The notes under the pieces were generated by a model. The model was not told where the DNA came from. It saw nothing but the letters and a program-made list of their open reading frames with translations, and searched no databases. Positions 43,267 to 59,458 of a stretch of DNA of 64,000 nucleotides are shown one piece after another (position 1 is the first letter of the stretch; every line of letters starts with the position of its first letter). Source of the stretch: Steroidobacter denitrificans (GTDB lineage Bacteria; Pseudomonadota; Gammaproteobacteria; Steroidobacterales; Steroidobacteraceae); the NCBI RefSeq assembly GCF_001579945.1, contig NZ_CP011971.1, positions 558,001-622,000 of the forward strand, in the 5' to 3' direction. Position numbers and translations under genes: made by a program.

Positions 43267-43327
43267 CCCTAGAGAGCCATTTCTCAGCATTTCACAAGAT
43301 TGCTTAGAACCCAGAAAGCAGCGCTAG

Positions 43328-43352
43328 AACCCCGGAAATTCCGGGGTTTTTC
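43328..43352 (+). terminator. Intrinsic terminator after ychF
   Basis: AACCCCGGA-AAT-TCCGGGGTT followed directly by TTTTCGTTTC: a 9-bp stem, 3-base loop and T-run. It is the clearest intrinsic terminator in the window. The mobile island begins just downstream. Confidence 0.9.
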
Positions 43353-43487
43353 GTTTCCATGGATTGCATGGGATTGCTCGGCCTTGCTCGCGTAAAGTGA
43401 CTACGCTGGTGTATACGAAGATTGGACGGGGCGATAGAAGGTGTATATGATCCTCCTGTCGTTCCTCATTGCCGATCTCGTGACACC

Positions 43488-44684
43488 GTGCTTACAGATG
43501 CCCACTGCCGTGCTGCCAAACCGAAGGAGCAGCTCTACCGCCTGAATGACCTTCGCGGCCTTTACCTCGAAGTGAAGCCCAATGGGGTCAAGGCTTGGCG
43601 CTACCGCTTCAAGCTGGGCGGTAAGGGGTCGTGGTTTGCGCTGGGCGACTACCCCACCGTCAGCCTTGCCGAAGCGCGGGACAAGTGCGAGGAAGCGCGG
43701 AAGCTGGTCAAGCAAGGCATCAACCCCGTCCAGCATCGGCAGCTTGAGCGCCTCAAGCGCGAACAGGATTCCGCCAATACCTTCGAGACCGTCGCCAAAG
43801 AGTGGCTGGCTCTGCGGGACTGGGAGGACATCACCAAGAAACGCCGCCTGGACATGCTGGAGCGGGTGGTCTTCCCCAGCATCGGCAAGCTCCCGGTGCG
43901 CGACATCACCCCGGCGCACGTTCTCGACATCCTCACCAAGACCGTGAAGCGCGGTGCGCCGACCGTCGCCGCCGAAGCGAAACGCACCATGTCCGGCATC
44001 TTCGAACTGGCGGTCGCCACCTTGCGGGCAGACAACGATCCCGTCTGGCCCGTCCGCAAGGCGTTGCCCGCCAACAAGACGCAACACAAGACGGCGCTGA
44101 CCACTGCGCAGATCGGCAAGCTGCTCAACGACTTCGACAACCACCGCTGCGGCTATCAGGTCAATTTCTGCATACAGTTGATGTGGTGGACACTGGCGCG
44201 TCCCAGCGAAGCGGCAGAAGCGGAATGGGCTGAATTCGATCTCGATGCCGCGCTTTGGACGATCCCAGCCCGGCGCATGAAAGCCCGCCGCGAGCATGTG
44301 GTGCCGCTGCCAACGCAGGCCATAGAGATGTTGCGTCGCCTGCACGCCATCAGCGGCGACCGGACGCACATCTTCCCCGGCAGGGATGACCGCAACAGGC
44401 CGATGTCGGTACATTCGATCCGGCAGGCGCTCAAGGTACTGGGCTGGAGTGGCACCTACAGCCCGCATGGCACCAGAACCACGGGCAGCACCCGGCTGAA
44501 CGAAATGGGCTATCGCCCGGATGCCATTGAAGCGCAGCTTGCCCACGCGGAACCCAACTCGGTGCGCCGCACCTACAACCATGCCACCTACCTCGAAGAG
44601 CGGCGGGGCATGATGCAGGCGTGGGCGGACAAGCTCGAAATCTGGAAGCGGGAGAGCACAGGTGAAGTCAGTAGAACACAGTGA
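43488..44684 (+). CDS. P4-type tyrosine integrase
   Basis: 398 residues from the GTG at 43488 (LTDAHCRAAKPKEQLYRLND). The N-terminal DUF4102 arm-binding domain (1-85) contains LYLEVKPNGVKAWRYRFKLGGK and LGDYPTVSLAEAR. The core-binding domain is about 100-190 and the catalytic domain about 200-385, with the first Arg in WTLARPSEAAEAEW (about 240), the HGTR box (about 326-329), a His in QLAHAEPN (about 353) and the Tyr nucleophile in RRTYNHATY (about 362). It would integrate and excise the island to its right. No tRNA lies at its left side, and no matching right attachment repeat was found. Confidence 0.92.
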   Translation: MLTDAHCRAAKPKEQLYRLNDLRGLYLEVKPNGVKAWRYRFKLGGKGSWFALGDYPTVSLAEARDKCEEARKLVKQGINPVQHRQLERLKREQDSANTFETVAKEWLALRDWEDITKKRRLDMLERVVFPSIGKLPVRDITPAHVLDILTKTVKRGAPTVAAEAKRTMSGIFELAVATLRADNDPVWPVRKALPANKTQHKTALTTAQIGKLLNDFDNHRCGYQVNFCIQLMWWTLARPSEAAEAEWAEFDLDAALWTIPARRMKARREHVVPLPTQAIEMLRRLHAISGDRTHIFPGRDDRNRPMSVHSIRQALKVLGWSGTYSPHGTRTTGSTRLNEMGYRPDAIEAQLAHAEPNSVRRTYNHATYLEERRGMMQAWADKLEIWKRESTGEVSRTQ

Positions 44685-45360
44685 GTACCTGCCCGACACG
44701 GAGGCAGGACACTCACTATTCAGGGAGCGCCTGATTGCAAAAATTCAGCAACATCGCGATTTCAAGGCGCTGCCACACGAAATTCAGTCGAGCTTCTTTG
44801 AGAGGTTAGCTGAACTCACCCTCTTCGGCACCAACAACTGTTCGGTGGAGACACATAGCTCACGGATACGCAAGCTCGAAAAACTGGCCGACAGTTATCG
44901 CCGGGTTGCCAATAGCATTGCGCTGCTTTCGGAAATAGATGAGCTGCTGCTCGATGATGCCTTTCAACACAGCATGCCTTTGCAACAGCAAAAGAAACTG
45001 ATGCGACAGCTGGCTGCCCAAGTTGATGAGCTGATAGGCGGGATGCGGCAGACGTCTACCAGCACGTCTGAGCGGATTTTGCTACGCCTGCAAGGTGCAA
45101 GCCTGCTTAAACAATTGGGCAAACTAGGGGTTGCCTGCAAAATCAACAATGACTTTCAGAAAATCACCCAAACTGATGCAGTGCTCAGCGAGGAAACCGA
45201 GCAAGCACAACGTTTTCTGCCGGATCTGTCGCAGAGCATGGCCCTTGCCATGCTCTGCACCATGCTGGTTCTCTTCAACAGCGGCCAGGTCGTTGAATGG
45301 AGCTACTGCCGCAGACTGCTGTTAGAAGGAGAAAAGGCTCTCAGGCAAGCGGCAGATTGA
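44662..45360 (+). CDS. Hypothetical helical protein downstream of integrase
   Basis: 232 residues from a GTG that overlaps the integrase end by 23 bases, so the two are co-translated. Mostly predicted helical, with charged stretches (RIRKLEKLADSYRRVANSIALLSEIDELLL, key part LEKLADSYRRVANS) and one moderately hydrophobic segment near the C-terminus (MALAMLCTMLVLFNSG, about 193-208). No known domain was recognised. Convergent with hsdM, 22 bases away. Coupling to the integrase suggests a role in element maintenance or accessory defence, but nothing in the sequence proves it. Confidence 0.7.
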   Translation: MKSVEHSEYLPDTEAGHSLFRERLIAKIQQHRDFKALPHEIQSSFFERLAELTLFGTNNCSVETHSSRIRKLEKLADSYRRVANSIALLSEIDELLLDDAFQHSMPLQQQKKLMRQLAAQVDELIGGMRQTSTSTSERILLRLQGASLLKQLGKLGVACKINNDFQKITQTDAVLSEETEQAQRFLPDLSQSMALAMLCTMLVLFNSGQVVEWSYCRRLLLEGEKALRQAAD

Positions 45361-45382
45361 ACCCATTCCAAGCATCAGGGGC

Positions 45383-46990
45383 TCAAGGTAACGGAGGCAA
45401 CCCCAACTCAGCCAGATACTGATTGTGGCGCGCCTTGGCGTCTGCAATCTTCTTCTCGGCGGCAACCAGGTCGGCATGAACCGCTGCCAGGTCGATCTCT
45501 TCCTCAGTTTGCGCGGTGCTCACGTAGCGCGAGATGTTCAGGTTGAAATCGTTTTTCTCGATTTCTTCCATGCTCACCCGGCGAGAGTAACGCGGCGCTT
45601 CCTTGCGGTAGCGGTAGGTGTCGATGATTTGGTCAATGTGCTCCGGCAAGAGCTGGTTCTGGCGTTTGCCCTTCTCATAATGCTCGGCGGCATTGATGAA
45701 CAGCACGTCGTCCGGCTTCTTGCACTTTTTCAGCACTAGGATGCACACCGGTATGCCAGTGGAGAAGAACAGGTTGGCTGGTAGGCCGATCACGGTGTCG
45801 ATGTGCCCATCCTTGAGCAGTTTGGTGCGAATGCGCGCCTCGGCCCCACCCCGGAACAGCACACCGTGGGGCAGGATGATCGCCATCACACCGTCTTGCT
45901 TGAGGAAATGGAAGCCATGTAGCAGGAAGGCAAAGTCAGCGGCGGACTTCGGTGCCAGGCCGTAATTCTTGAAGCGCACGTCTTCGCCCAGCGCCTCGCT
46001 TGGCTCCCAGCGATAGCTGAACGGCGGGTTGGCCATCACCGCGTCGAACTTCGGCATCTTCGCTGGGTTGGTTTCGCGCAACATGTCCCACTCGTTGAGC
46101 AGGGTATCGCCATGGAAAATCTCGAACTCCGAGTCCTTCACCCCGTGCAGCAGCATGTTCATGCGCGCCAGGTTGTAGGTGGTGATGTTCTTCTCCTGGC
46201 CGTAAATCTTACCAATGCCATGCGGCCCCATCAGGCGGCGCACATTGAGCAGCAAGGAGCCCGAGCCACAGGCAAAGTCGAAGACACTATCCAGATGCGA
46301 GCGCTTGCCTGTGGCAGGCTCCTGGCTGTCCAGCGTGACGATGGCCGACAAGATGTCTGAAATGCGCTGCGGCGTATAGAACTCGCCAGCCTTCTTGCCC
46401 GAGCCTGCCGCAAACTGGCCGATCAGGTACTCGTAGGCATCGCCCAGCGTGTCACTGTCGGTAGAGAACTGCCCCAGTCCCTTGGCGATCTCGGCGATGA
46501 TCTTGCACAGGCGGGCATTGCGCTCGCTGTAGGTTTTGCCCAGCTTATCCGACGCCAGATTGATCTCTGAGAACAGGCCCCGGAAGGTGCTGGCGAAGGA
46601 CTCTTCCTCGATGTACTTGAAGCCTTTTTGCAAAGTGTGCAGCAGCTCGGCATCCTGCGTGCGCGCCATCTCGGCGATGTTGCCCCACAGGTATTGGGGT
46701 TCGATCACATAATGCACCTTGCGGCGCATCTGCTTCTCGAATTCCGGCACATCGTCCAGGTTGCATTCGTACCAGAGCTGCAACGGCGTAGAGACTGAGC
46801 CATCAATCTGCTGCGGATAGTCTGGCCCCAGCTCCTTCTGAGCGGCGGCCTCGTAGTTGTCCGACAGATAGCGAAGGAAGAGAAAAGCCAGCATGTAATC
46901 GCGGAAGTCGTCCGCATTCATCGCGCCACGCAACTGGTCGGCGATGGCCCAGAGGGTCTTGCCTAGCCTTTGTTTTTCGAATTCAGTCAT
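45383..46990 (-). CDS. hsdM: Type I restriction-modification methyltransferase subunit
   Basis: 535 residues. The N-terminal HsdM helical domain (LWAIADQLRGAMNADDFRDYMLAFLFLRYLSD, about 10-42) precedes the N6-adenine methylase domain, with SAM-binding FDFACGSGSLLLNV (about 238-251) and catalytic NPPF in DAVMANPPFSYRW (about 319). It methylates adenines in the site chosen by HsdS and protects host DNA. It is the last gene of the operon, 3 bases after the PrrC-like gene; most type I loci place hsdM first or beside hsdS. Confidence 0.95.
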   Translation of the reverse strand: MTEFEKQRLGKTLWAIADQLRGAMNADDFRDYMLAFLFLRYLSDNYEAAAQKELGPDYPQQIDGSVSTPLQLWYECNLDDVPEFEKQMRRKVHYVIEPQYLWGNIAEMARTQDAELLHTLQKGFKYIEEESFASTFRGLFSEINLASDKLGKTYSERNARLCKIIAEIAKGLGQFSTDSDTLGDAYEYLIGQFAAGSGKKAGEFYTPQRISDILSAIVTLDSQEPATGKRSHLDSVFDFACGSGSLLLNVRRLMGPHGIGKIYGQEKNITTYNLARMNMLLHGVKDSEFEIFHGDTLLNEWDMLRETNPAKMPKFDAVMANPPFSYRWEPSEALGEDVRFKNYGLAPKSAADFAFLLHGFHFLKQDGVMAIILPHGVLFRGGAEARIRTKLLKDGHIDTVIGLPANLFFSTGIPVCILVLKKCKKPDDVLFINAAEHYEKGKRQNQLLPEHIDQIIDTYRYRKEAPRYSRRVSMEEIEKNDFNLNISRYVSTAQTEEEIDLAAVHADLVAAEKKIADAKARHNQYLAELGLPPLP

Positions 46991-46993
46991 TAT

Positions 46994-48067
46994 TTATCCT
47001 GCATGCAATGCAAATTTGTATTTTTCCAGCAACTTGGCGAAGATATCTCTAAATACTGCCTCAACTGCGGGCGGCATAAGATCGCTCTGATAATAATAAG
47101 CGTCTTTATGGGAAAGTGAGTTGATAACGTTGGCGGCATTTTCGTGATCTTCAATGCCTATTTGGGCGAGGGTGTACCCAATATTTCCTCTCCCAAAGAA
47201 TGAAGCAATGTTCTCAAGCGCTTGTCGCAGCATGACGACATGATGGGTGTAAAGCTGGTCTCGGCTAGCCTCTTCAAGAATCTGAAGAAGGTGCAAGTGA
47301 AATAGAAAAACACTATTCCTTGGCGTCCCTAAGGCATATGCACCGGCAATGTTTTTTAGGGAAAAAATCTTGGTTAAATTCTTGTACCTATCGCTTTTCT
47401 CACCTTTTTTCAAACGATCCACCAAAATTGAAAACAGTCCTATGTGATGGGTCGTTATTATTATTTTTTTCTTGAGATAGTGCCGCTCAATTTGCTGAAA
47501 CACTGTTTCAGCGGTAACGTAAATATTATGTTCATCAAGGCTAGATACAGGGTCATCAATGAAAATATGCGCGTCCTGAGTATTGGACCACCCATCAACC
47601 TCTAAGAGAGCCAAGAAAAAGCACCAAACAAAAATTCTCTCTTCGCCGCGAGAGATTTTTATCGGCACATCTTCATCATCGTTGGTGACGAAAGTGATCG
47701 ACTCAATTCCGTTCTCAAGATTTTCGTAGGGATTCAGCTTAAAATTAAATTTTGGCGAATACATCGCCAACTTATCCATGACTGCATCTGGATTCTCATA
47801 CAGAAAGCTATGGAAGCGGTTCAAGCTGCTGGGCAAAATATTGAGCTTTATGTTCGCACCGCCATTGTCTTCATCGTTATCCCAGACAAAAAGGTCTTCG
47901 CTGAATGCGTTGTAGTAAACGCCAGTGTGTTGGCCATTATCAGAGTTTTTAGTTGCATTTTTGTATGCCACCGATAATCTGGTTTTTCCTGTGGCATTGA
48001 ATGCATAAATGAGAATAATGTTCTCACCCAGCTTTTTTAGCTGCTCTGCAATATCTTCAATACTCAT
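46994..48067 (-). CDS. PrrC-like anticodon nuclease/NTPase
   Basis: 357 residues. The start (IEDIAEQLKKL, then ILIYAFNATGKTRLS) matches the PrrC family: Walker A AFNATGKT at 22-29, then YYNAFSEDLFVWDND (about 51-65). ABC-like parts follow: RGEERIFVW (signature region, about 140) and HIFIDDPVSSLDEHN (Walker B/D-loop, about 164-178). The C-terminal third carries R281-x3-E285 (MLRQALEN) and H320 (SLSHKDAYY), arranged like the R-E-H triad of PrrC. PrrC cleaves the tRNA-Lys anticodon loop when its type I partner is inhibited by phage. The gene lies between hsdS and hsdM (one-base overlap with hsdS) and is visibly more A+T rich than its neighbours, suggesting separate acquisition. The nuclease assignment is an inference. 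Confidence 0.72.
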   Translation of the reverse strand: MSIEDIAEQLKKLGENIILIYAFNATGKTRLSVAYKNATKNSDNGQHTGVYYNAFSEDLFVWDNDEDNGGANIKLNILPSSLNRFHSFLYENPDAVMDKLAMYSPKFNFKLNPYENLENGIESITFVTNDDEDVPIKISRGEERIFVWCFFLALLEVDGWSNTQDAHIFIDDPVSSLDEHNIYVTAETVFQQIERHYLKKKIIITTHHIGLFSILVDRLKKGEKSDRYKNLTKIFSLKNIAGAYALGTPRNSVFLFHLHLLQILEEASRDQLYTHHVVMLRQALENIASFFGRGNIGYTLAQIGIEDHENAANVINSLSHKDAYYYQSDLMPPAVEAVFRDIFAKLLEKYKFALHAG

Positions 48068-49371
48068 TACCCTACCTCGGACATGACGGGAAATAACTGT
48101 TCCATCAGGCCCTTCTTGTGGATCATGAGGACATCAATTTTCTGGCTTTGGGCGGCGATGAAATCGTCGAGGGAAGACAAACAGTTGGCGATACGATCTT
48201 GCTCTGAAAACTCTGGGACAAGCAATCTGACTGCCGAAAACTGGGTCTTGTTTATAATAGGAACGGCCTGAATACCTGCGAGTTTGGCGATGCGTTCTGC
48301 GTTCAAGCTGAGGATGTAATACACGAATCCGCCTGAATGCTCAGAATTTGGGATTACGGAGTTGATCTGCTGATTGGTCGCGCAGTCCCGAACATTTTGA
48401 GTCACTTTCCCGATAGTTGACCCGATGCACACAAACAGAACGCTGTTCGCTTTGATCGGACGGGTTTTTTCAAACCCCAAAGCACTCAAAGTGGTCTTTG
48501 TGTCGCTCACCCATCGCAGATCGGAAATGTCGGCTGGGGAGACGAATGGGATGCCACCGCCATAGAACTCTGGATGTGCCGTGCTAGGGGTACTTCCAGT
48601 AATAATTTCTCCGAAATCACTAATGGATTTCTCCTTCCACTCCCCCAAATTCCGAAATTCCGGAAACCGTAACCGCGGCACAGTTTCGCCTTCGCAGGGG
48701 AAAAGCTGCTGCATCAGGCCCTTTTTGAGGGTCTTGAAGGTGTCGAGCTTGTAGGTTTCCGCCGCGATCAGATCATCCAGCGAAGACAGGCAGTCGGCGA
48801 TTTTTTTTTGTTCGTCCAGCCTGCTTGGATAGTACAACTTCACATTTCCCAGCCGAGTTGGCGATAGTCCGAGCACCTTTGCACCTTGCGCTTCTCGCTG
48901 TATCTGTTTTCTCAGCCCCTCAGACGAGAAGAGATAAGCGCCAAAGCCCAGAGCCATAGAACCTTTATTTGGTCTTGCAAGAATGGTGTGCAAACCAGAT
49001 ACAAGCGGGACATCTCCTGCATCAATGATTTCGATGGCCTTGCCGATGTCCGCCATATCCTCGGAAGCATCGGCGAAAACCATGTCACCAGCCATGCAGT
49101 AGTTTTCGGGACGAATTGTGGAGTGCGACTCCCCTTCATTGATGTAGGGGACTGGCTCGGCATCAGCATGGAAATGCTGAGCAAACTTTGTATGGATATC
49201 TCCGTAATGAATATTCCTGTAGGAGCCATTGGTGTAATTCAGCTTATCCCGAGAAAGGGAGTTGTTTCCCCTGAAGGTATAACCCGCCGACATCGGCAAC
49301 AAGCGCCACTCATCCTTAAACTCCGGGAACCGCAACCGCGGTACCAACGGCTTTCTTTCATGACCACTCAT
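48067..49371 (-). CDS. hsdS: Type I restriction-modification specificity subunit
   Basis: 434 residues with two target-recognition halves, each opening PRLRFPEF (about 10 and 233) and closing in a helical spacer: IADCLSSLDDLIAAETYKL...KKGLMQQLFP (about 187-224) and IANCLSSLDDFIAAQSQKI...KKGLMEQLFP (about 390-428). The near-identical spacers frame divergent recognition domains that bind the two halves of a bipartite site. The DNA target cannot be read from sequence. It overlaps the AlbA_2 gene by 4 bases and the PrrC-like gene by 1 base. Confidence 0.93.
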   Translation of the reverse strand: MSGHERKPLVPRLRFPEFKDEWRLLPMSAGYTFRGNNSLSRDKLNYTNGSYRNIHYGDIHTKFAQHFHADAEPVPYINEGESHSTIRPENYCMAGDMVFADASEDMADIGKAIEIIDAGDVPLVSGLHTILARPNKGSMALGFGAYLFSSEGLRKQIQREAQGAKVLGLSPTRLGNVKLYYPSRLDEQKKIADCLSSLDDLIAAETYKLDTFKTLKKGLMQQLFPCEGETVPRLRFPEFRNLGEWKEKSISDFGEIITGSTPSTAHPEFYGGGIPFVSPADISDLRWVSDTKTTLSALGFEKTRPIKANSVLFVCIGSTIGKVTQNVRDCATNQQINSVIPNSEHSGGFVYYILSLNAERIAKLAGIQAVPIINKTQFSAVRLLVPEFSEQDRIANCLSSLDDFIAAQSQKIDVLMIHKKGLMEQLFPVMSEVG

Positions 49372-50531
49372 GCCGCTTGCTCCTGTGGCCGTGCCACGAT
49401 GGCCTTGAACAGATTTCCAGCCCGGTCGTCGATCAGTTCAATCTGCGGCCAGGCCCGCAAGGCGCGCAGCAGGCCGCTACCCAGTCCGCGATACGGCAAG
49501 AGCTTTGCCGCAAAAGAGGCCAAAATCGGGTTGCGCATATTCGAGTTGCCCGCCTTGATGTTTTCGATGGTCAGGTTGTTGGGCAGATGACCAGGGCTGA
49601 TGATCTCGACCCGATCGGCAAACACCAACACGCGCACCGGCGCGCTGATGAAATAGTCGCGGTGGATGAGCGCGTTGGCGACCAGCTCTTCCCAGACGAT
49701 GCGCGGAATCTCCGATTGGCCTTGGGAGTTGAAGCCCTGTTCACCCTGAGTGGCACGGGTGTTAGCGACGATGAAGCCGAGCGTCTGCTGGAATACATCG
49801 GCCAGCTTACCGGTGATGTCGCGGCTGTCGATGTAGCGCTGGTCTTCGATCTCATTGCCGACAAAAGCCACCGCCTTGACGATGAAGGCAGGCAGTGCGT
49901 ACTGCGGCGCTTTGGCAAACAGCAGGCTGCCCGCCACATTGAGCTGCCCCTGGTTCATCAGGTTCATGTTGGTCAAGAGCTGCGGCAGCGGTTGCTTGTG
50001 CTGGGAGAGCGGCTCGCCAAATTGCTGTTCGAAGAAGGTTGCGAAATAGGGCAGGTCCACATCGCCCGCACTCAAGCCCGCCACGGGCGTCTCATCCGCA
50101 TGCACCAGCCCAGCCTGCTGGAACAGGCGCTGGATTTCCTCGCGCGAGGTGGCGCGGCGCTTGTCCGAGCCGTTCTTCACCCAGATGGCTCCGTTCTTGT
50201 CCATGTAGGGTTTGCTGACGCCTTCAGTAACGGTGACCACCATCACGGTGCCATTGGGGTGCGGCACGTTTTCGGTGAGCGGGTTCACCGCAGGCCGCAC
50301 ATTTTGTGAGGCACTGTTCGAGATGAGCTGGTTCAGGCGGTCGATGTCCGCGTGAGACAAGCCCAGCACCGTGCCGTCGTTTTGCACGCCAATGAAAATC
50401 TGCCCGCCAGCGCTGTTGCTGAAAGCGACGATCTCCGCCGCCAGCGCGTCGGCATTGGTGAAGTTCTCTTTGAACTGATGGCGGCTGTCTTCGCCACGGC
50501 TCAAGCAGTCGATCAGTTCTGTGGTTTCCAT
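49368..50531 (-). CDS. AlbA_2-domain ATP-binding protein
   Basis: 387 residues. The N-terminal AlbA_2 (Schlafen-like) domain shows ESRHQFKEN-type SRHQFKENFTNADALAAEIVAFSNSAGGQIFIGV (key parts HQFKEN and FSNSAGGQIFIGV, about 18-48). The C-terminal GHKL-like ATPase region has WEELVANALIHRDY (about 283-296) and a GLGSG loop (about 351-355). Such proteins often sit inside type I restriction loci and are thought to be nucleotide-dependent regulators or nucleic-acid binders; the role is unproven. It overlaps the PHP-SMC gene by 19 bases and hsdS by 4. Confidence 0.82.
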   Translation of the reverse strand: METTELIDCLSRGEDSRHQFKENFTNADALAAEIVAFSNSAGGQIFIGVQNDGTVLGLSHADIDRLNQLISNSASQNVRPAVNPLTENVPHPNGTVMVVTVTEGVSKPYMDKNGAIWVKNGSDKRRATSREEIQRLFQQAGLVHADETPVAGLSAGDVDLPYFATFFEQQFGEPLSQHKQPLPQLLTNMNLMNQGQLNVAGSLLFAKAPQYALPAFIVKAVAFVGNEIEDQRYIDSRDITGKLADVFQQTLGFIVANTRATQGEQGFNSQGQSEIPRIVWEELVANALIHRDYFISAPVRVLVFADRVEIISPGHLPNNLTIENIKAGNSNMRNPILASFAAKLLPYRGLGSGLLRALRAWPQIELIDDRAGNLFKAIVARPQEQAA

Positions 50532-53155
50532 AGGTTGTAAACCTCTTTGCGTCGGTTGAAGGCTTCCTGGCCTCCTTCCATGATGTTGATGATGGCGTCC
50601 TGCACCGGACGAGCGTCGATGCTGCCGCTTTGTACGGCGACTTGCTCATCCTGATAGCGGCAGGCATGCACTTGCTCCGCATCACCCAGCACCGGAAAGT
50701 TGGCGTTGTGGGTGGCGAAGATGAATTGGGCGTGAGGCTTCATCTCGCGCAGTAGCTTGATCACGTCGTCGTAGATGGTCTGGTTGTCCAGATCGTCTTC
50801 CGGCTGGTCAATTATGATCACGTCGTTCTGGCGCTGGCTGAGCACATATAGCAGCAACGCGGAAGCACGCTGCCCGAGCGAGTGGTGCTTGAGTTCCTTG
50901 CCGCGATAGCGAATGACGAAACGGTTAGGCACCTGATAGACCACGAACTCCATCAGGTTTTGCATGAAAGTCTTTTCGAAAACCTCCGGCGTGCTGCCCG
51001 CTTTTTTCAAGGCGTTTGGCAAATCACGCAGCAGCCCGCCGAAATCGGCGTAATCCTCCATCACTGCGCGCAGGGTGGTTTCGCGGATGTTGCTGCCCTT
51101 GAAGAGCTGCTGCATGAAACTGATGGCGGCTTCCTTGTCGCCCTTGAAGTCGGCTTCGATCTGCAAGGCGGTATGGCCAGCGTTCACCCGATCCAGTTCG
51201 GCCTTGATGGCGTTGAACTCGCGCAGCCACAGGCCGTTGAGCTTGTCGATCTCGGCAAACAGTGCGTCGCGGATGCTACTTTGCTGGCTTTCCTGCTTGG
51301 CCAGCGCCTCCAGCATTTGCTCCGCCTTGGTTTTGCGCTGCTGTTGGGTCAGGAAGTCATCCGGCTGGATGGCCGTCATGCCGGTCTGCTTGAGTTCCTG
51401 AGCCAGCTGACGTTCGACCTGGGCAAACTCTTCCTGAAGACTCTGGCGCGCGGCATCGAACTCGCCTTGTTTGAATTGAAGCCGGGAGGTAACAGCGCGG
51501 GCCTCTTGCTCGATTTGCTTGAGCTGATCGACTTTGGTAACGAGGTTGGCAAATTCGGCGTAATAAGCAGTGAAGAAGTCGGGGTTCTGCTTGGAGACGT
51601 AGCTCGTGGCATTACGCAGATCGTCTTCGTGCTCGGCGATCAATTGCCCCAAGGCGAGCACGAAGCTGTCTGCCCGCTCCTTCATGCGTGCCAGTGCACT
51701 GGCATCCTGCTGGAAGCCAAGGCGCTTTTGCAGCTTGTCGGCAACCCCGTACTCTTCAAATTTCTTCAGTCGGAAGTTGGCATCGGTGAGCTGGGACTCG
51801 TAATCACGCCTGAGTTCGGCAGTATTGCTGAGTTTGAGCCAGCGCTGCGCAGCATCACGCACATGCTGGCGTTGGGTTTCGATTTCGTCTCGCAGTGTGC
51901 GGAGCTTTTCGCCCACCAGCTTTTCCACTAGATCGGTCTCGAAACCTTCGCCGGTGCTGGAAAGGTCTTTCTGCCCGAAGTAGATCGGACGGCGCAGCAC
52001 GGTTTCCCGGATCGATACACCGGGCTGCAATTTGCCGTCCAGATAGACGTTCGGCGCTTCGCGGAAAATGCGGGAGATGGTGAATTCCTGTCCGTATACG
52101 TCACAGGCCGTCAGCGTCACCTTACCGCCGCTGCCCAGAGTGTGGCGGATCAGTTCATCCTTGTACTTGGTGTCCTGCGCTTTCTCCCCGCGAGGAATAT
52201 CGAGAGCGTAGCGCACTGCTTCCAGAATGGAAGACTTGCCGCTGCCCCGGATGCCGATCAACGTGTTCAGTTCAGGCGAGAAATGCAGCGTTTTCCCGTC
52301 AAGGATGCCCCCGTCAAAGTGAATGCTGCGGATGTGCGATGCGAGATGCTTGGGCGGCTCCGTGACGACCCGCGAAGCAGGATCGCTCAAGGCAAACTTG
52401 ACCGCATCAAAGGACAGTTCACCCAATTTGAGGTAACAGGCTTTACCCTGACCAATCTCTTCGATGCATTTGGCGTCGCAACCTTCGAGCTCGGCGGGGT
52501 ACCAGCCACCTAGATGCTGCTGCGTTTTAGTCCGGCAGGGTTTGTTTTTCTCTTGCAGCTTGTTGTACGTGCGTACCTTTTGGAAGCCCAACGTGCGACG
52601 GCGGAAGAATTCGTTCTGGCCCAGCTCGGCAAGACGCCCCCCGTCCAATTCGGCCCACAGCCCGCTCGGTGCTTCGACATGGGCAAAGACAAGGAAAAAG
52701 TCGCGGTGATAGCTTTCCAGCTTCTTGATGGTTTCCAACAGTGACAGAGAGGAACGCCCGTTTTCCTGCTCGTACTGGGCAGGGACTTTTCCTTCAAAGG
52801 CAACACCCAGGAAGGGGTTGATATGGTCATGACCATCGGCCAACCAGTCGTCGGAAAAAACGACCAAGGTGTGGATGCCATTGGCCCCGTCATTGACCGA
52901 CAGCTCGACGCCGGGCAACAGCGCAATATCCTTCTTCTGCGCTGTCTTGCGCAGCGCTTTGAACTCCTCGAAATCGAACTTGTTGTGATTGGTGATGACG
53001 CCCAGCTGAATACCTGCTTTCTCCAGTGCGTTCACATAATTGCTGTTGTAGAAGTTGTCATCGCCTGTGTACTTGAACTCACGATCTGCGCGGGTGTGCA
53101 GATGGAAGTCCGCACGAACCCACTGCGCCCCCTGTGTAAAGACGGTTCCCATCAT
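50513..53155 (-). CDS. PHP-domain SMC-like ATPase (TrlF-type)
   Basis: 880 residues. An N-terminal PHP metal-dependent phosphoesterase domain keeps ADFHLHT (H18, H20), GVITNHN (about 52-58), LLPGVELS (about 79-86) and FAHVEAP (about 158-164), so the metal site looks intact. The Walker A IGIRGSGKSS is near 303-312, a long coiled coil spans about 400-690, and a signature SLGQRASALLLYVLS with Walker B DVIIIDQPEDDLDNQ (about 775-790) closes an SMC/Rad50-like ATPase. The combination predicts an ATP-gated nuclease or phosphatase sensing DNA. It overlaps hsdR by 4 bases. Relatives occur next to restriction genes; biochemical function is not established. Confidence 0.8.
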   Translation of the reverse strand: MMGTVFTQGAQWVRADFHLHTRADREFKYTGDDNFYNSNYVNALEKAGIQLGVITNHNKFDFEEFKALRKTAQKKDIALLPGVELSVNDGANGIHTLVVFSDDWLADGHDHINPFLGVAFEGKVPAQYEQENGRSSLSLLETIKKLESYHRDFFLVFAHVEAPSGLWAELDGGRLAELGQNEFFRRRTLGFQKVRTYNKLQEKNKPCRTKTQQHLGGWYPAELEGCDAKCIEEIGQGKACYLKLGELSFDAVKFALSDPASRVVTEPPKHLASHIRSIHFDGGILDGKTLHFSPELNTLIGIRGSGKSSILEAVRYALDIPRGEKAQDTKYKDELIRHTLGSGGKVTLTACDVYGQEFTISRIFREAPNVYLDGKLQPGVSIRETVLRRPIYFGQKDLSSTGEGFETDLVEKLVGEKLRTLRDEIETQRQHVRDAAQRWLKLSNTAELRRDYESQLTDANFRLKKFEEYGVADKLQKRLGFQQDASALARMKERADSFVLALGQLIAEHEDDLRNATSYVSKQNPDFFTAYYAEFANLVTKVDQLKQIEQEARAVTSRLQFKQGEFDAARQSLQEEFAQVERQLAQELKQTGMTAIQPDDFLTQQQRKTKAEQMLEALAKQESQQSSIRDALFAEIDKLNGLWLREFNAIKAELDRVNAGHTALQIEADFKGDKEAAISFMQQLFKGSNIRETTLRAVMEDYADFGGLLRDLPNALKKAGSTPEVFEKTFMQNLMEFVVYQVPNRFVIRYRGKELKHHSLGQRASALLLYVLSQRQNDVIIIDQPEDDLDNQTIYDDVIKLLREMKPHAQFIFATHNANFPVLGDAEQVHACRYQDEQVAVQSGSIDARPVQDAIINIMEGGQEAFNRRKEVYNLWKPQN

Positions 53156-56124
53156 CGCCCCTCCTCATAGGCAGCCAAACCAGCAATCTCTCGACCCTGG
53201 GCGAGCTTGTGCAGCAGTGGTGTCAGCTCTTCCATCAGGGCCAACTCTTTCTGCGTGCGGGCTTTCCATCCAAGTTCCAGCGGGGCCATCAACTCGGAGA
53301 GGCGTTCGCCATCGAAAATGCGGCGGCGCAAAATGTCATCGACAAAGGCTTGCAGCGCTGATGCGTCCAGTGTGTGGCGGTTGGCGAGATCGGTGAGTTC
53401 CCGTGTTTTTTTCTCTGCCTTGAAGCGGTCGAATCCGCTGCGGATTTGATTTTCGTCCAGGGCTTCATTGACTGGCAGGCCACGGATGTACTCGGCGATG
53501 TCCTCGCGCTCGTCGATGAACTTGGCATCGGACTGAATCAGGCTGATGAGCTGCTCACGGTTCATGGTGAGCTTGCCGGGCTTCTGCTGGGTCAGCTTGG
53601 CGATGAGGCCCATGATGTAGTCGTAGTCGATCACGCTTGAGGCGAAGAGTACGAATTCAAAATCAAGCTGCTGCACTTCTGGCGGGGTCTGGTCGCGATC
53701 CTGCTGTTCCTTAAAGCGCTTGGCCGTTTCGAGGTACACACCTTTGAAGCCCTGCATCTGATCGGGTGGCGCAATCTGGGTGATCTGCGCCTTCTGCTCA
53801 TCCGAGAGATCGGTATATTGATCGAGCTGGGTCTTGAGGCGCTGTACTTCCTTGAACAGATTGACGAACTGCGCCCGTGCGGCATCGCCTTTCAGGTTGG
53901 CCACGTCTTCCGGCGCATTGCCCACGCCTTGCGACTGCATGAAGTCAGCCAGCTTCTGTGTGGCGGTTTGCAGGTTATCGATGACCTTAGGCGCGGGGTC
54001 TACCAGCCAGATTTCACGCGGGTTGTCGATCTTCTCGCCAGAGAACAGTGCAATCGCCTCTTCGACCGGCTTTTGCTGCTGACGGAAGTCGAGGATGTTG
54101 CCATAGGGCTTGCTGTCGTTGAGCACGCGATTGGTGCGCGAAAACGCCTGGATCAAGCCGTGATGCTTGAGGTTCTTATCCACGTACAGGGTATTGAGGT
54201 ACTTGGAGTCGAAACCGGTAAGCAGCATGTCCACCACGATGGTGATGTCGATCTTTTGCGCGGCGGGGAGATCGCTGTTGGCGTACTGCTGATCCTTGAT
54301 GCGCTTTTGCACATCCTGGTAGTACAGGTCGAACTCGCTGATGCGATGGTTGGTGCCAAAGCGCGTGTTGTAATCGGTCACGATGCGCGTGAGCGCCGCT
54401 TTTTTGCCTTCGGGGTCTTGCTGGTTATCTTCTTTCTCTTGCGGCAGGTCTTCCTGAATCTGCTGTACGTCCTTATTTCCCTCGGCAGGTGGGGAGAATA
54501 CGCAGGCAATGTTCAGCGGACGGAACTCAGGGTCTTGCTCGGTCTTTTGTTTTTGAATCTCCGCGAACAGTTCGAAATACTCGATGGCATCGTTGATGCT
54601 GGCCGTTGCCAACACCGCGTTGAACTTGCGGCCATTGGTCGCTGCATCGTGCTTGGCGAGAATGGTTTCAATGACCTTGGGCTTGGCCACACCTTCACCA
54701 GGCTTGGGAGGATTCTTGCCTTCGGGCTTGAAGTAATCCACGTGAAAGCGCAGGACGTTGCGATCCTCGATGGCGTGGGTGATGGTGTATTGATGCAGGC
54801 AACGCTGGAAGAGGTCGTCGGTCGTGCGGTAACTGGCTTGCTGACCTTCGATCTGCTGGTAGCTGGCGTTCTTCTCGAAGATGGGTGTGCCGGTAAAGCC
54901 AAAAAGCTGGGCGTTGGGGAAGAACTCCTTGATGGCTTTGTGGTTGTCGCCGAATTGTGAGCGGTGGCATTCATCAAAGATAAATACCATGCGCTGGTTG
55001 CGTAATGGCTCCAGCCGTTCCTTGTAGTTGCGCCTGTTGGCCCCATCCAGAGCCAGGCCCAGCTTCTGAATGGTGGTGACGATGACTTTATCGGCGTAGT
55101 CATCCGACAGTAGGCGGCGCACCAGTGTCTCGGTGTTGGTGTTCTCTTCGACGCAGCCTTCCTGAAAGCGGTTGAATTCCTCGCGAGTCTGGCGATCCAA
55201 GTCTTTGCGATCCACCACAAACAGACACTTGTCGATGTCCGGATTGTCTTTGAGCAGGGTGGACGCCTTGAACGAAGTCAGCGTCTTGCCTGAGCCGGTG
55301 GTGTGCCAGATGTAGCCGTTGCCGCAATTCTGGTGGATGCACTCCACGATGGCTTTGACGGCATAGATTTGGTATGGCCGCATCATCAGCAGCTTCTGCT
55401 CGCTGGCCACCAGCACCATGTAGCGGCTGATCATTTGCCCTAGAGTGCACTTGGCCAGGAACTTCTCGGCAAAACTATCGAGCAGCGTGATTTTTTTGTT
55501 GTCTTCGCTGGCAAACTGGTAAACCGGCAAGAAGCGCTCATCTGCGTTGAAGCTGAAGTGCCGTGCGTTGTTGTTGGCGAAATACCAAGTGTCGGTGCGG
55601 TTGCTGACGATGAAGAGCTGCAGGAAGCACAGCAGCGTCTTGCTATAGCCATTGCCGGGGTCAGTCTTGTAATCAACGATCTGCTGCATGGCCCGGCGCG
55701 GGCTGACCGCCAAGGTCTTCAGCTCGATTTGTACCACCGGTACGCCGTTGATGAGCAGCATCACGTCGTACCGGTGATGGCTGTTGTCAGTGTTCATGCG
55801 CAACTGGTTGACGACCTCAAAGTCGTTCTTGCACCAGTCCCGGATGTTCACCAAGGTGTAGTTCAGCGGCGTACCATCGTCGCGCTCGAAGCTGTTGATG
55901 TTGCGAAGCCGCTGGGCAGCGCCGTAGACATCGGGCGTGATGATGCCGTCGAGCAAGCGCTGAAACTCGCTGTCAGTCAGATGCACGCGGTTCAGCGCTT
56001 CGAACTTGGCTCGGAAGTTGGCTTCGAGCGCGGCGCGGTCGCGAATGCCGGGGCGATAGGTGTACTTGAGGTCGCCGAGCTTGGCGATCAGATCGAGTTC
56101 GATTTGTTGTTCTGTGGTCGTCAT
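53152..56124 (-). CDS. hsdR: Type I restriction endonuclease/translocase subunit
   Basis: 990 residues. The N-terminal PD-(D/E)xK nuclease has D120 and the ELK motif in VPVVQIELKT (about 128-137). The superfamily 2 motor follows: TTGSGKT (about 277), DECHRS (about 385), GFTGTPIF (motif III region, about 410) and later the helicase C-terminal AFSRTNRVL-type block (SRTNR, about 665). A helical C-terminus (about 830-980) contacts HsdM. It cuts unmodified DNA after ATP-driven translocation. It is the first large gene of the operon, preceded at 67 bases by an AlpA-like gene. Confidence 0.96.
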   Translation of the reverse strand: MTTTEQQIELDLIAKLGDLKYTYRPGIRDRAALEANFRAKFEALNRVHLTDSEFQRLLDGIITPDVYGAAQRLRNINSFERDDGTPLNYTLVNIRDWCKNDFEVVNQLRMNTDNSHHRYDVMLLINGVPVVQIELKTLAVSPRRAMQQIVDYKTDPGNGYSKTLLCFLQLFIVSNRTDTWYFANNNARHFSFNADERFLPVYQFASEDNKKITLLDSFAEKFLAKCTLGQMISRYMVLVASEQKLLMMRPYQIYAVKAIVECIHQNCGNGYIWHTTGSGKTLTSFKASTLLKDNPDIDKCLFVVDRKDLDRQTREEFNRFQEGCVEENTNTETLVRRLLSDDYADKVIVTTIQKLGLALDGANRRNYKERLEPLRNQRMVFIFDECHRSQFGDNHKAIKEFFPNAQLFGFTGTPIFEKNASYQQIEGQQASYRTTDDLFQRCLHQYTITHAIEDRNVLRFHVDYFKPEGKNPPKPGEGVAKPKVIETILAKHDAATNGRKFNAVLATASINDAIEYFELFAEIQKQKTEQDPEFRPLNIACVFSPPAEGNKDVQQIQEDLPQEKEDNQQDPEGKKAALTRIVTDYNTRFGTNHRISEFDLYYQDVQKRIKDQQYANSDLPAAQKIDITIVVDMLLTGFDSKYLNTLYVDKNLKHHGLIQAFSRTNRVLNDSKPYGNILDFRQQQKPVEEAIALFSGEKIDNPREIWLVDPAPKVIDNLQTATQKLADFMQSQGVGNAPEDVANLKGDAARAQFVNLFKEVQRLKTQLDQYTDLSDEQKAQITQIAPPDQMQGFKGVYLETAKRFKEQQDRDQTPPEVQQLDFEFVLFASSVIDYDYIMGLIAKLTQQKPGKLTMNREQLISLIQSDAKFIDEREDIAEYIRGLPVNEALDENQIRSGFDRFKAEKKTRELTDLANRHTLDASALQAFVDDILRRRIFDGERLSELMAPLELGWKARTQKELALMEELTPLLHKLAQGREIAGLAAYEEGR

Positions 56125-56191
56125 GAACCTTGCCTCAAAGACCCAAACGGTTTGCTACCGCCGTTGTTCTGGCGGGGGAATGCCATGGAGC

Positions 56192-56401
56192 TCATGTATG
56201 CCGACTCCCCGGCTCACCGACATCTTCATCTGCGCCGCCTGCACGCACCCATTCATCCACTTCGGAGAGCTGGAACTTCCACAGCCGCCCCACGCGGTGT
56301 GCGGGCAGACCCTTGCGCTCGCGCCAGCGGTACACGGTGTCCTTGGCCACGCCCAAGTGCTGGGCGACGTGATCGGCGGTAACCCACGGTTCTGTACTCA
56401 T
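56192..56401 (-). CDS. AlpA/excisionase-type helix-turn-helix protein
   Basis: 69 residues of the MerR-like HTH_17 family: WVTADHVAQHLGVAKDTVYRWRERKGLPAHRVGRLWKFQ (key parts HVAQHLGVAKDTVYRW and GRLWKF, about 6-44), followed by SEVDEWV. Members act as excision directionality factors or as small regulators. Placement as the first gene of the leftward operon, next to the repeat-rich region, suggests it controls the hsd operon or excision of the island. Confidence 0.85.
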   Translation of the reverse strand: MSTEPWVTADHVAQHLGVAKDTVYRWRERKGLPAHRVGRLWKFQLSEVDEWVRAGGADEDVGEPGSRHT

Positions 56402-56538
56402 GTCGATGAAGCTCGGAGGTTGCGATTGAAAGTCGTCTTAAGTCGTTTTGAGTCTATCATTTGAATGCTGCGGAAGCATAAAAATTGTTATTGGCTACTG
56501 TCGTTGTGAGTTGAATGTGGTAACACGGGGCGCAGAGC

Positions 56539-56671
56539 CACACTGTCACCACCATGGCTACACACTGTCGCCACAGGGTGACCACATTGTCGCCACCATC
56601 CTTGCCACCCATTCAACACATTGTTCGCACAAGGCTGCCACGTTGTTGCCAGCATGCCGCCACACTGTTCA
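56539..56671. repeat. Direct-repeat array 1, CACA(C/T)TGT(C/T), 22-bp phasing
   Basis: CACACTGTC or close variants start at 56539, 56561, 56583, 56617, 56639 and 56661; spacings are 22, 22, 34, 22 and 22. A degenerate half-copy fits inside the 34-base gap. Regular two-turn spacing suggests cooperative protein binding on one face of the helix. Confidence 0.7.
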
Positions 56672-56730
56672 CACAGTAAGTCGGCAGCCTGATCTGATCG
56701 CACAGATAATTTTCGCTGGTCACAAAGCCC

Positions 56731-56934
56731 CATGCCCCGTTACTCCCTCGCCTGGGCACAAGATAAGCAATAACAGTCAAGGGATTTGGAATCTACGTTG
56801 TGCAACTTTGGAATGTACGTAGCTGGAAATAAGTTTTTCGCTGTCTGATCATGTGCCCGAACAACAGAGCATTGGAAAGAACGTTGCGCCTTGTTGGAAA
56901 CAACGTAGTGCCAGATAGGGAGTAACGGGGCATG
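56731..56934. repeat. 18-bp perfect inverted repeat framing array 2
   Basis: CATGCCCCGTTACTCCCT at 56731-56748 and its exact reverse complement at 56917-56934, 168 bases apart. Nearby GGTCAC (56718-56723) and GTGACC (56934-56939) extend the symmetry with a small offset. Confidence 0.75.
56786..56908. repeat. Direct-repeat array 2, TTGGAAnnnACGT(T/A)G, 22-bp phasing
   Basis: Fifteen-base units at 56786, 56808, 56872 and 56894: two pairs, each spaced 22 bases, with 64 bases between pairs. Degenerate half-sites (CTGGAAA-type) occur at 56823 and, outside the inverted repeat, at 56973 and 56988. Confidence 0.7.
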
Positions 56935-57010
56935 TGACCATGCTAAAAGTCATGCGATCTGCGCCGCAGGATTTGGAAACCCGACGACTGGAAACAGCGT
57001 ATTTTTTTGC

Positions 57011-57748
57011 CTACTCAGTTGGCGGCATGTCCGCATTGCCGCTGCTGCGGAAATGGGCGTCAACCACGCGGGCGATGTCAGCAGGCTGGGCTCCTGCGTT
57101 GAATGCAAAACGCAGCGCCCGCTCCAGTTGTTGCCAGCCCTGCGCTGAAGAGACATTACTGCCCACTGTTTCAGCTAGGCGAAAAATCAGTCCCTCCAGC
57201 AGTTCTTCGTCCCCGACGTCCGCCGCCACCTGCTCCGCCAATGCCAGGAGAACGTTGTGTGCTGATGCCAACGAGTCGATTGGCACCCCGGCCAATGCTG
57301 CAGGGGTGGTGATGACACGATCCACCCTGACGACTGTCGCCAAATCAAGGGCTTGATCGACGCCCGGCTCGATCTCCATGCGGATCAGCACATCGCCAGC
57401 CAACAGAAAGCGGGTTTTGATAAGCCCCGGCTGTTCATCCTGAAACAACCACACCGGCTGCGTGTTGGCCAGCAGCGCGCTCAGCACGAGCCTGCTGTCA
57501 TTCAGTGCCCCGCGATCCTGCCACTGGTGCAACACGTCGGTACGCAGGCGACCGCCTTCCACACCGAGGTGGTGCAGCAGGCCGACCAGTCGTTTGGCGG
57601 AGATCACCTGCTCCTTGCCACGCAGCCAGACCGAGAGGTTGGCAGTACGGATGCCGGTGGCTTCGGCGATCCGCCCCAGCGTTTCCCCGCGCAGTCGTAT
57701 CAAGGCGGCGGCAAAGCGTGGCAATTGTTCGTTGGCAATGCTTGGCAT
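57011..57748 (-). CDS. HTH regulator of a divergent AAA+ module
   Basis: 245 residues from the ATG at 57748 (MPSIANEQLPRFAAALIRLRGETL); the frame stays open upstream but would run into the divergent ATPase gene. An N-terminal helix-turn-helix is visible as LGRIAEATGIRTANLSVWLRGK (about 24-45, recognition helix RTANLSVWL). The remaining 200 residues are mixed, with FLLAGDVLIRMEIEPGVD and AHNVLLALAEQVAADVGDEELLEGL. No known ligand domain was recognised. Paired operator-like sites at 57767-57782 and 57841-57856 fit repression of both divergent promoters. Confidence 0.72.
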   Translation of the reverse strand: MPSIANEQLPRFAAALIRLRGETLGRIAEATGIRTANLSVWLRGKEQVISAKRLVGLLHHLGVEGGRLRTDVLHQWQDRGALNDSRLVLSALLANTQPVWLFQDEQPGLIKTRFLLAGDVLIRMEIEPGVDQALDLATVVRVDRVITTPAALAGVPIDSLASAHNVLLALAEQVAADVGDEELLEGLIFRLAETVGSNVSSAQGWQQLERALRFAFNAGAQPADIARVVDAHFRSSGNADMPPTE

Positions 57749-57766
57749 GTCGGGCTCTGTGAATTC

Positions 57767-57856
57767 ACTGTAAATCACTATAAGACTTATTGACCGACAA
57801 GACGAGCGTACGGAGTTTGGCGATTCGCGCAAACCACTGTTATAGTAATTTATAGT
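57767..57856. promoter_or_regulatory. Divergent promoter region with inverted pair of 16-bp sites
   Basis: ACTGTAAATCACTATA (57767-57782) and TATAGTAATTTATAGT (57841-57856) are inverted copies matching at 13 of 16 positions. One abuts each divergent gene. They are likely operators of the HTH protein. Confidence 0.55.
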
Positions 57857-57877
57857 TAGGCTATTTGAGAGGCCATC

Positions 57878-59452: not shown

Positions 59453-59458
59453 GGTTGC

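What the first reader, a model, noticed from the sequence alone, without database searches (positions are those of the whole stretch)
45383..56401. Composite seven-gene defence operon: HTH-hsdR-PHP/SMC-AlbA_2-hsdS-PrrC-like-hsdM
All seven genes run leftwards. From hsdR on, every junction is an overlap or a gap of at most 3 bases, so they form one unit, while the AlpA-like gene is 67 bases upstream. It joins complete type I restriction subunits with three extra nucleotide-dependent proteins: an apparently active PHP domain fused to an SMC-like ATPase, an AlbA_2/GHKL protein and a PrrC-like nuclease. The nuclease gene comes first and the methylase last, the reverse of the usual safe order, so establishment in a naive host would need strong delay or allosteric control of HsdR. 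R-linked ORFs and PrrC are known in other type I loci; this exact set acting as one system is, as far as I can tell, not described.
Basis: partly seen in the sequence, partly recalled or inferred. Interest (0 to 1): 0.75.

Follow-up and report, generated by a model that had tools for sequence, protein, structure and literature searches.

The report
Restriction operon with embedded trlFG module
A mobile bacterial DNA-restriction operon carries two built-in extras, a suicide-type tRNA-cutting enzyme and a two-gene 'trlFG' module that comparison finds again and again next to or inside other kinds of restriction operon, which suggests that a module known only for stopping growth at high temperature may really belong to antiviral defence.

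Summary
The seven genes and junctions are real. hsdR, hsdS and hsdM form a type I (EcoR124-like) operon; the 'PrrC-like' gene matches the PrrC model and keeps its catalytic triad; the PHP/SMC gene is TrlF family; the AlbA_2 gene is a homologue of trlG, the growth-arrest gene of the Photorhabdus Temperature Restricting Locus. The same order sits on IncA and IncC plasmids, Tn7-like elements in E. coli and contigs of several other genera. It is not one obligate system: ten of ten evaluable relatives from an HsdR scan lack trlFG; one plasmid keeps only a trlFG remnant; Arsenophonus lacks trlFG and prrC; trlFG often occurs without hsd genes. In the window, prrC is a foreign allele (34-37% identity to sister operons, neighbours 79-99%). 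New here: trlFG abuts or lies within five kinds of restriction operon (two type I families, methylase/helicase pairs, MmeI-like, Eco57I-like). Best reading: a modular restriction operon with a PrrC guard and an embedded trlFG guest acting as second-line, probably growth-arresting, effector; that function is inferred. The hsdR-first order is normal in this family.

The parts
56192..56401 (-). HTH_17/excisionase-like regulator, first gene of the operon; MAD1-like but below the MAD1 cut-off
   Evidence: Pfam HTH_17 57.8 bits; NF047737 64.7 bits vs cut-off 80; 67-68 nt before hsdR in all eight copies measured
56430..56454 (-). candidate operator: 10-bp direct repeat about 45 nt upstream of the HTH start
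   Evidence: tandem repeat; motif (written from window, L008 and L021) found in the window and in all eight other fetched operons in which this HTH gene precedes hsdR, although the flanks of L008 and L021 differ
53152..56124 (-). hsdR, type I restriction subunit, EcoR124-like C terminus
   Evidence: EcoR124_C 236 bits, HSDR_N, ResIII; PADLOC REase_I 1133 bits; DECH box
50513..53155 (-). trlF: PHP domain fused to RecF/Rad50/SMC-like ABC ATPase
49368..50531 (-). trlG homologue: Schlafen-type AlbA_2 domain + GHKL-like ATPase domain
   Evidence: Pfam; 62% identical to the protein after TrlF on plasmid pYR3, which I take for its trlG; fold matches
48067..49371 (-). hsdS, specificity subunit
   Evidence: Methylase_S, 2 stretches; 30-48% to HsdS of 12 related operons
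46994..48067 (-). prrC-family anticodon-nuclease gene, foreign allele (GC 0.412)
   Evidence: PADLOC PrrC 322 bits; R281, E285, H320 invariant in four aligned PrrCs; 34-37% to PrrC of 12 related operons
45383..46990 (-). hsdM, type I methyltransferase subunit
   Evidence: TIGR00497 382.5 bits; NPPF motif
43422..44684 (+). tyrosine integrase of the carrier island, which begins at the stop codon of ychF
   Evidence: Arm-DNA-bind_3 + Phage_integrase; shared with L018 right up to the ychF stop codon

Best explanation
A mobile type I restriction-modification operon of one family (hsdR-hsdS-prrC-hsdM, behind an HTH regulator) into whose hsdR/hsdS junction a separate two-gene module, trlF-trlG, has been inserted and fitted with overlapping reading frames. 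SHOWN by comparison: the gene set recurs; trlFG is a stable pair in this TrlF clade; it is present or absent independently of the rest; it abuts or lies within several kinds of restriction operon; PrrC is a frequent but exchangeable companion. INFERRED: HsdRMS cuts unmodified DNA; PrrC is held silent by the restriction complex and, when a phage disables it, cuts tRNA (as described for EcoprrI); trlFG is a second-line effector pair that uses restriction as partner or trigger. TrlF, a PHP protein distantly related to Ppl (described as an exonuclease activated by 3' ends and nucleotide depletion), would sense or degrade the DNA ends that restriction makes, and TrlG (Schlafen-type AlbA_2 + GHKL) would execute or control growth arrest, as trlG does in Photorhabdus at high temperature.
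For: Same order in L007, L008, L016 and in 8 of 80 scanned loci, with conserved overlaps. trlG follows trlF in 75 of the 80 kept relatives, the other five being L044 and four contig ends. trlFG without hsd genes: L009, L010 and many of the 80. hsdR-hsdS-prrC-hsdM without trlFG: L015; no trlFG in ten of ten evaluable loci of an HsdR scan of 398 genomes. Remnant: L157. Neighbours: of 51 upstream same-strand ORFs 13 match EcoR124_C, 3 Methylase_S, 4 N6_N4_Mtase, 5 T5orf172; of 32 of 37 downstream ORFs, 10 match Methylase_S, 5 ResIII. Restriction gene within 400 nt in 23 of 40 well-flanked loci against 25 of 213 other large ORFs in the same loci. PrrC logic: passages of PMC3874165, PMC3506569, PMC2610378. 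trlG growth arrest: PMC7554251 sections 6, 9, 10 part 1. Ppl: PMC12904381 passage.
Against: No experiment links trlFG to phage defence; the only published phenotype I saw is temperature-dependent growth arrest, and there no mutations fell in trlF. 17 of 40 well-flanked loci show no restriction gene under the strict rule (one of them, L036, does lie between hsdS-rhuM and hsdM). More distant TrlFs occur without trlG. TrlF is far below the Ppl cut-off (164.7 vs 1000 bits). TrlG keeps the first Schlafen catalytic Glu but has an invariant Gln at the second, so ribonuclease activity is doubtful. The 23-of-40 figure uses queries partly taken from trlFG neighbours, so it is inflated. Clustering in defence islands could yield part of the linkage without functional coupling. 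trlG is truncated in L023.
Confidence: 0.6

Rival explanations
1. Passive co-residence: trlFG is an independent defence or growth-control module that merely accumulates in restriction operons because they are mobile, co-transcribed and tolerated insertion sites; no biochemical coupling.
For: trlFG and solo trlF occur without restriction genes; other large ORFs in the same loci adjoin restriction genes in 25 of 213 cases; another gene, for a PDDEXK protein, uses the same hsdR/hsdS slot in L159.
Against: The association recurs in five kinds of restriction operon with co-directional junctions, many of tens of bases or overlaps, and 15 of 40 well-flanked loci have restriction genes on both sides.
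Confidence: 0.27
2. The seven genes are one dedicated composite system in which all three accessory proteins are needed for restriction or its control.
For: Tight overlaps conserved among copies; no minus-strand sigma-70-like site inside.
Against: Relatives lacking trlFG keep the other hsd genes; Arsenophonus lacks trlFG and prrC; trlG is truncated to 148 aa in L023 and prrC in the window is a replaced allele.
Confidence: 0.06
3. trlFG controls establishment: it delays or restrains HsdR so that an hsdR-first operon can enter a naive host safely.
For: trlF lies directly after hsdR and overlaps it.
Against: The same hsdR-first order exists without trlFG in relatives; in EcoKI, delay of restriction in a new host is mediated by ClpX/ClpXP (PMC3874165 passage).
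Confidence: 0.05

Closest known systems
EcoprrI (type IC restriction system with PrrC anticodon nuclease)
   Same: Type I operon with prrC embedded; ABC-ATPase plus Arg-x3-Glu...His triad
   Different: Order here hsdR-hsdS-prrC-hsdM; adds trlFG and an HTH gene; this PrrC is 34-37% identical even to the PrrCs of related operons; no direct comparison with the EcoprrI sequence was made
Restriction-linked ORFs (rlo genes) of Campylobacter jejuni type I loci (Miller et al. 2005, seen only as cited in PMC2610378 passages)
   Same: Accessory ORFs inserted within type I operons
   Different: The rlo genes named in that passage are RloC-type; trlFG also enters other restriction kinds
Temperature Restricting Locus trlR-trlF-trlG of Photorhabdus and Yersinia ruckeri pYR3 (PMC7554251)
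   Same: trlF and trlG adjacent; 52% and 62% identical to the pYR3 pair
   Different: In Photorhabdus a three-gene operon between polA and dsbA, no hsd genes mentioned; the window HTH shows no similarity to the putative pYR3 trlR; Photorhabdus sequences themselves were not compared
Ppl (PHP exonuclease anti-phage protein)
   Same: PHP domain plus NTPase; match over residues 9-632
   Different: 164.7 bits against a cut-off of 1000; single-gene system; TrlF has a partner gene
MADS (methylation-associated defence system)
   Same: Weak similarity of the HTH, HsdM and HsdS proteins to MAD1, MAD2, MAD5
   Different: All NCBIfam MAD matches lie below their cut-offs

Membership tests
Type I restriction-modification system (IC/EcoR124-like) | HsdR, HsdM and HsdS with their domains | tested here: met
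Type I restriction-modification system (IC/EcoR124-like) | Restriction and methylation activity at a specific site | not testable with these tools
   needs methylome and plating assays
PrrC | ABC-ATPase plus ACNase triad Arg-x3-Glu...His, embedded in a type I operon | tested here: met
   PADLOC PrrC 322 bits; R281, E285, H320 invariant in A3; triad definition from PMC2610378 passages
PrrC | Cleaves tRNA-Lys and is silenced by the Hsd complex | not testable with these tools
   biochemistry
RloC | Coiled-coil insert with CXXC zinc hook in the ATPase domain | tested here: not met
   357-aa protein with no CXXC in the sequence printed; feature from PMC2610378 passages
TrlF family (NF045780) | Score above curated cut-off over the full length | tested here: met
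   595.9 vs 350 bits, residues 9-874
Temperature Restricting Locus (trlRFG) | trlF followed by trlG | tested here: met
   pYR3 proteins 52% and 62% identical; pYR3 named as a carrier in PMC7554251 section 9; Photorhabdus sequences not compared
Temperature Restricting Locus (trlRFG) | trlR-like first gene | tested here: not met
   no alignment of window HTH with the 79-aa pYR3 protein that I took to be trlR by its size and place
Ppl | Score above the curated cut-off | tested here: not met
   164.7 vs 1000 bits
Schlafen-type RNase | AlbA_2 fold | tested here: met
Schlafen-type RNase | Catalytic Glu pair corresponding to SLFN13 E205/E210 | tested here: not met
   E14 kept in 90% or more, second position Gln19 invariant in 53 sequences; residues from PMC5862951 passages; correspondence inferred from motif spacing and aligned ranges
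MADS | MAD1/MAD2/MAD5 above NCBI cut-offs | tested here: not met
   64.7/80, 53/720, 20.3/400 bits

The most novel reading that the evidence does not exclude
trlFG is a general 'restriction guest' module: a growth-arrest effector pair that plugs into, and is licensed by, several kinds of restriction enzyme (type I, methylase/helicase pairs, MmeI-like, Eco57I-like). The Photorhabdus Temperature Restricting Locus would then be an orphaned defence module whose heat-induced growth arrest is autoimmunity after loss of its restriction partner; pYR3, where the published annotation has methylase-subunit pieces just before trlFG, would be an intermediate.
Probability: 0.33. Interest if true: 0.75.

Novelty: new variant of a known kind. 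Interest (0 to 1): 0.5.

Why it matters
PrrC is the classic case of a suicide enzyme wired to a restriction enzyme. If trlFG is a second such module that can plug into several kinds of restriction enzyme, it gives a testable general rule for layering immunity and growth arrest, offers an explanation for an odd temperature phenotype, and suggests a function for a protein family whose relatives (E <= 1e-20) occur in 241 of 72,556 plasmid records.

Tried and rejected
(1) 'Unique operon': rejected; 58 plasmid records match, some only in part, and 49 of 5,426 E. coli genomes. (2) Unsafe order as an anomaly: rejected. (3) trlR = window HTH: no similarity. (4) Restriction remnants on pYR3 by tblastn with my queries: nothing significant (the relevant piece is a 13-residue HsdM match at E 6.7); the remnant statement rests on PMC7554251 section 9. 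(5) TrlG as an active Schlafen RNase: second Glu is Gln. (6) Close relatives of the window's PrrC: in 398 genomes 33-40% identity, apart from one 80-residue piece at 52%; in the listed plasmid rows 35% at best over most of its length, short pieces up to 43%. (7) Solved homologues by sequence: SMC/Rad50-type matches and one implausible coiled-coil match for TrlF, 3lmm for TrlG, none for PrrC. (8) attR of the island: no exact repeat longer than 13 nt of 42901-43500 in 56401-64000. (9) The PHP fold was not confirmed by structure: fold rows cover residues 271-864 only. (10) A paper search on the plasmid carriers failed on a character and was not repeated.
Full report
OBSERVATION. The seven ORFs, strands and coordinates are as stated. 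Pfam, NCBIfam and PADLOC agree on the parts: an HTH_17 protein; HsdR with HSDR_N, ResIII and EcoR124_C; a TrlF-family protein (NF045780, 595.9 bits against a cut-off of 350); SLFN_AlbA_2 + HATPase_c_4; HsdS; a PrrC-family AAA_13 protein (PADLOC PrrC, 322 bits); HsdM. Junctions are +67, -4, -19, -4, -1, +3 nt. No sigma-70-like site was seen on the minus strand within 45300-56900; terminator-like sites, however, exceed the shuffles (22 against 12.6, sd 3.4), seven of them on the minus strand inside genes. Whether it is one transcript remains untested.

NOT UNIQUE. Megablast of the 11-kb operon finds 58 plasmid records, some matched only in part: two K. quasipneumoniae plasmids at 96.5% over 80%, and the rest of the 20 listed at about 91% over 78-79%. 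Fetched copies show the same seven genes in the same order in L007 (an IncA plasmid), L008 (an IncC plasmid, beside Tn7-like transposition genes) and L016 (an E. coli chromosome, Tn7-like genes beside yhiN). Of 5,426 E. coli genomes 49 have a match; 31 of the 40 listed rows (of 51 records) hold the 78% three-piece match. In the scan of GTDB genomes (409 TrlF relatives, best 80 kept) the order hsdR-trlF-trlG-hsdS-prrC-hsdM is seen in 8 of 80 loci (L017-L021, L023, L025, L042; L019 is cut at both ends and L023 has a shortened trlG), and the HTH gene in L017, L018, L020, L021 and the cut locus L022. The 97 relatives of the host searched hold no full-length match to the window's TrlF: three have partial matches.

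CARRIER. In P. yangonensis (L018) homology to the window runs 42164-46990 and 49312-62431; L017 and L020 share 45385-46990 and 49320/49310-62331. The island begins at the ychF stop codon, beside a tyrosine integrase; the ends of the two hosts' ychF genes differ and the sequence becomes the same from there. The operon is therefore cargo of an integrase island here, and of Tn7-like elements and plasmids elsewhere.

ALLELE EXCHANGE. Among 13 operons compared (window plus 12; L008 and L016 are identical in all proteins, and L015 has no trlFG), HsdR is 84-100%, TrlF 91-100%, TrlG 78-100% and HsdM 83-100% identical; for the window against the others these four are 79-99%. HsdS is 30-67% apart from two identical pairs. 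PrrC is 69-100% among the 12, but the window's PrrC is only 34-37% identical to all of them, with GC 0.412 against 0.43-0.57. The window's hsdS-prrC block has therefore been exchanged while the genes around it stayed. Its relatives in 398 genomes reach 33-40%, apart from one 80-residue piece at 52%. The catalytic triad is kept: R281, E285, H320, fitting Arg-x3-Glu...His as described for PrrC/RloC (PMC2610378 passages).

MODULARITY. (a) trlFG without hsd genes nearby: P. avellanae plasmid L009 and Y. ruckeri L010/L097, and many of the 80 loci. (b) trlF without trlG: Sulfitobacter, C. freundii, E. coli pMAR2, Listeria plasmids (40-50% identity) and L044. (c) hsdR-hsdS-prrC-hsdM without trlFG: E. 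coli L015. To avoid starting from trlF I scanned 398 genomes with HsdR (31 have a match at E <= 1e-100, the window's own included), fetched the 11 regions whose near-full-length HsdR is 67% or more identical (the partial hits in G198 and G262, and all hits at 44% or less, were left out), and mapped genes: L147 shows no hsdS and was set aside; in the other ten no trlF or trlG match was found, and hsdS is the next gene found after hsdR. In L154 a gap of about 0.97 kb between them was not identified. PrrC was found in seven of seven stretches where the hsdS-hsdM interval is visible. (d) Plasmids chosen by me, mostly because TrlF was not listed with hsdR, so not an unbiased set: Comamonas L158, Prosthecochloris L160 and A. 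baumannii L161 have no trlFG; Methylomonas L159 has a PDDEXK-nuclease gene in that slot; Arsenophonus L162 has neither trlFG nor prrC; Pseudomonas sp. CIP-10 L157 (HsdR 92%) keeps a short piece in which the end of trlG (residues 298-387, 56%) follows shortly after hsdR and what looks like the first codons of trlF, with hsdR, hsdS, prrC and hsdM annotated as genes (this table never marks pseudogenes). (e) Conversely trlFG occurs with this hsd family but without a PrrC match in L036, L051 and L058, where hsdM is seen.

WHAT trlG IS. The AlbA_2 protein is 62% identical to the protein next to TrlF on Y. ruckeri pYR3, the plasmid that Hapeshi et al. 2020 name as carrying the Temperature Restricting Locus trlR-trlF-trlG (PMC7554251; I read the abstract, sections 6 and 9, part 1 of section 10, and passages). 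That this protein is their trlG is my inference from gene order. In Photorhabdus, trlG mutations or deletion of the locus allow growth at 36 C, the operon restores the restriction, and no mutations fell in trlF; on pYR3 the authors note two small genes annotated as type I subunit M between trlR and trlF, which my own search did not confirm. The window's HTH shows no similarity to the 79-aa pYR3 protein that I took for trlR. A trlG relative (E <= 1e-30) occurs in 54 plasmid records.

trlFG IN RESTRICTION OPERONS. trlG follows trlF in 75 of the 80 kept loci; of the other five, four are cut at the contig end. Of 51 upstream same-strand ORFs ending near trlF, 13 match EcoR124_C, 3 Methylase_S, 4 N6_N4_Mtase, 5 T5orf172 and 1 Eco57I; of 37 downstream ORFs I scanned 32 (left out: four at contig ends and one of 104 aa), of which 10 match Methylase_S and 5 ResIII. 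Layouts: hsdR-[trlFG]-hsdS (window kind; diverged L034 and L051; L054 and L058 with hsdR but no hsdS found); hsdM-rhuM-hsdS-[trlFG]-...-hsdR of another type I family (L029, L055; L044 with trlF only); hsdR...hsdS-rhuM-[trlFG]-hsdM (L036); N6_N4 methylase-[trlFG]-SNF2/ResIII helicase (L063, L064, L073, L075, L078, L088, L089; only one side seen in L074, L076, L080); MmeI-like-helicase-GIY-YIG-[trlFG] (L024, L030, L031, L035; L065 is cut within trlF, L041 shows the GIY-YIG match only); [trlFG]-Eco57I (L043, L057). With 1.5 kb or more on both sides, 23 of 40 loci have a restriction gene within 400 nt on the same strand and 15 have one on both sides, against 25 of 213 other ORFs of 300 aa or more in the same loci. 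The queries were partly chosen from trlFG neighbours, so the contrast is inflated; near-identical copies are not independent. On a quick TrlF tree (86 rows, LG+G4, 27 of 82 inner branches open), 60 rows with a defined context need at least 18 changes and the 38 restriction-linked rows, labelled in seven kinds, need at least 10, so contexts seem to have switched repeatedly.

MECHANISM. PrrC is described as held latent by its type I partner and released when phage T4 Stp inhibits restriction (PMC3874165 and PMC3506569 passages); a 2025 review calls PrrC and PARIS RM guardian systems (PMC12707154 passages). For TrlF the nearest characterised relative is Ppl (NF042955, 164.7 bits over 9-632, far below its cut-off of 1000), described as a ssDNA 3'-5' PHP exonuclease needing DNA ends and nucleotide depletion (PMC12904381 passage). 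I infer that trlFG is a second layer acting on, or triggered by, what restriction leaves behind, with TrlG setting growth arrest; no step of this is shown.

REGULATION. A 10-bp direct repeat lies about 45 nt upstream of the HTH start (56430-56454). The motif, written from the window, L008 and L021, is present in the window and in all eight other fetched operons in which the HTH gene precedes hsdR, even where flanks differ: a candidate operator.

LITERATURE. In the held library no paper joins TrlF with phage and defense, and of the 15 hits for trlG only PMC7554251 looked relevant, judged by the listing; subscription papers and preprints are mostly not covered.

VERDICT. Real, well conserved, mobile and modular; the exact set is present in databases but I found no description of it. 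The new point is that trlFG recurs as a guest of several kinds of restriction operon.

Noticed in passing
window 56430-56454: 10-bp direct repeat upstream of the HTH gene, motif conserved in the fetched operons with that gene; candidate autoregulatory operator.
   Followed up: partly
window 56538-56596: Second repeat array, 22-bp unit, about 2.7 copies, upstream of the HTH gene.
   Followed up: no
window 43266-62431: Integrase island that starts at the ychF stop codon; shared with P. yangonensis L018 at its own ychF; right end not found.
   Followed up: partly
window 46994-49371: hsdS-prrC block exchanged relative to sister operons; prrC GC 0.412; no relative above 40% identity over most of its length in the samples searched.
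   Followed up: yes
L157 14973-15275: Deletion remnant of trlFG between hsdR and hsdS on a Pseudomonas plasmid; the other operon genes are annotated.
   Followed up: yes
L023 12625-13068: trlG reduced to 148 aa directly before hsdS in Pseudogulbenkiania ferrooxidans.
   Followed up: no
L148, L153, L154: rhuM-like gene beside prrC between hsdS and hsdM; rhuM also accompanies trlFG in L029, L036, L055.
   Followed up: no
L013 and similar plasmids: Solo TrlF relatives (about 47% identity) are frequent on listed E. coli plasmids, in pMAR2 between ccdAB and vapB.
   Followed up: no
NC_019069.1 near 143451-143981: The prrC match on this E. coli plasmid covers only half of the query and has no listed gene; prrC may be broken there.
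   Followed up: no
window 59715-60218: cpYpsA (SLOG-family) protein within the island; the neighbouring ORFs 60188-61925 have no Pfam match.
   Followed up: no
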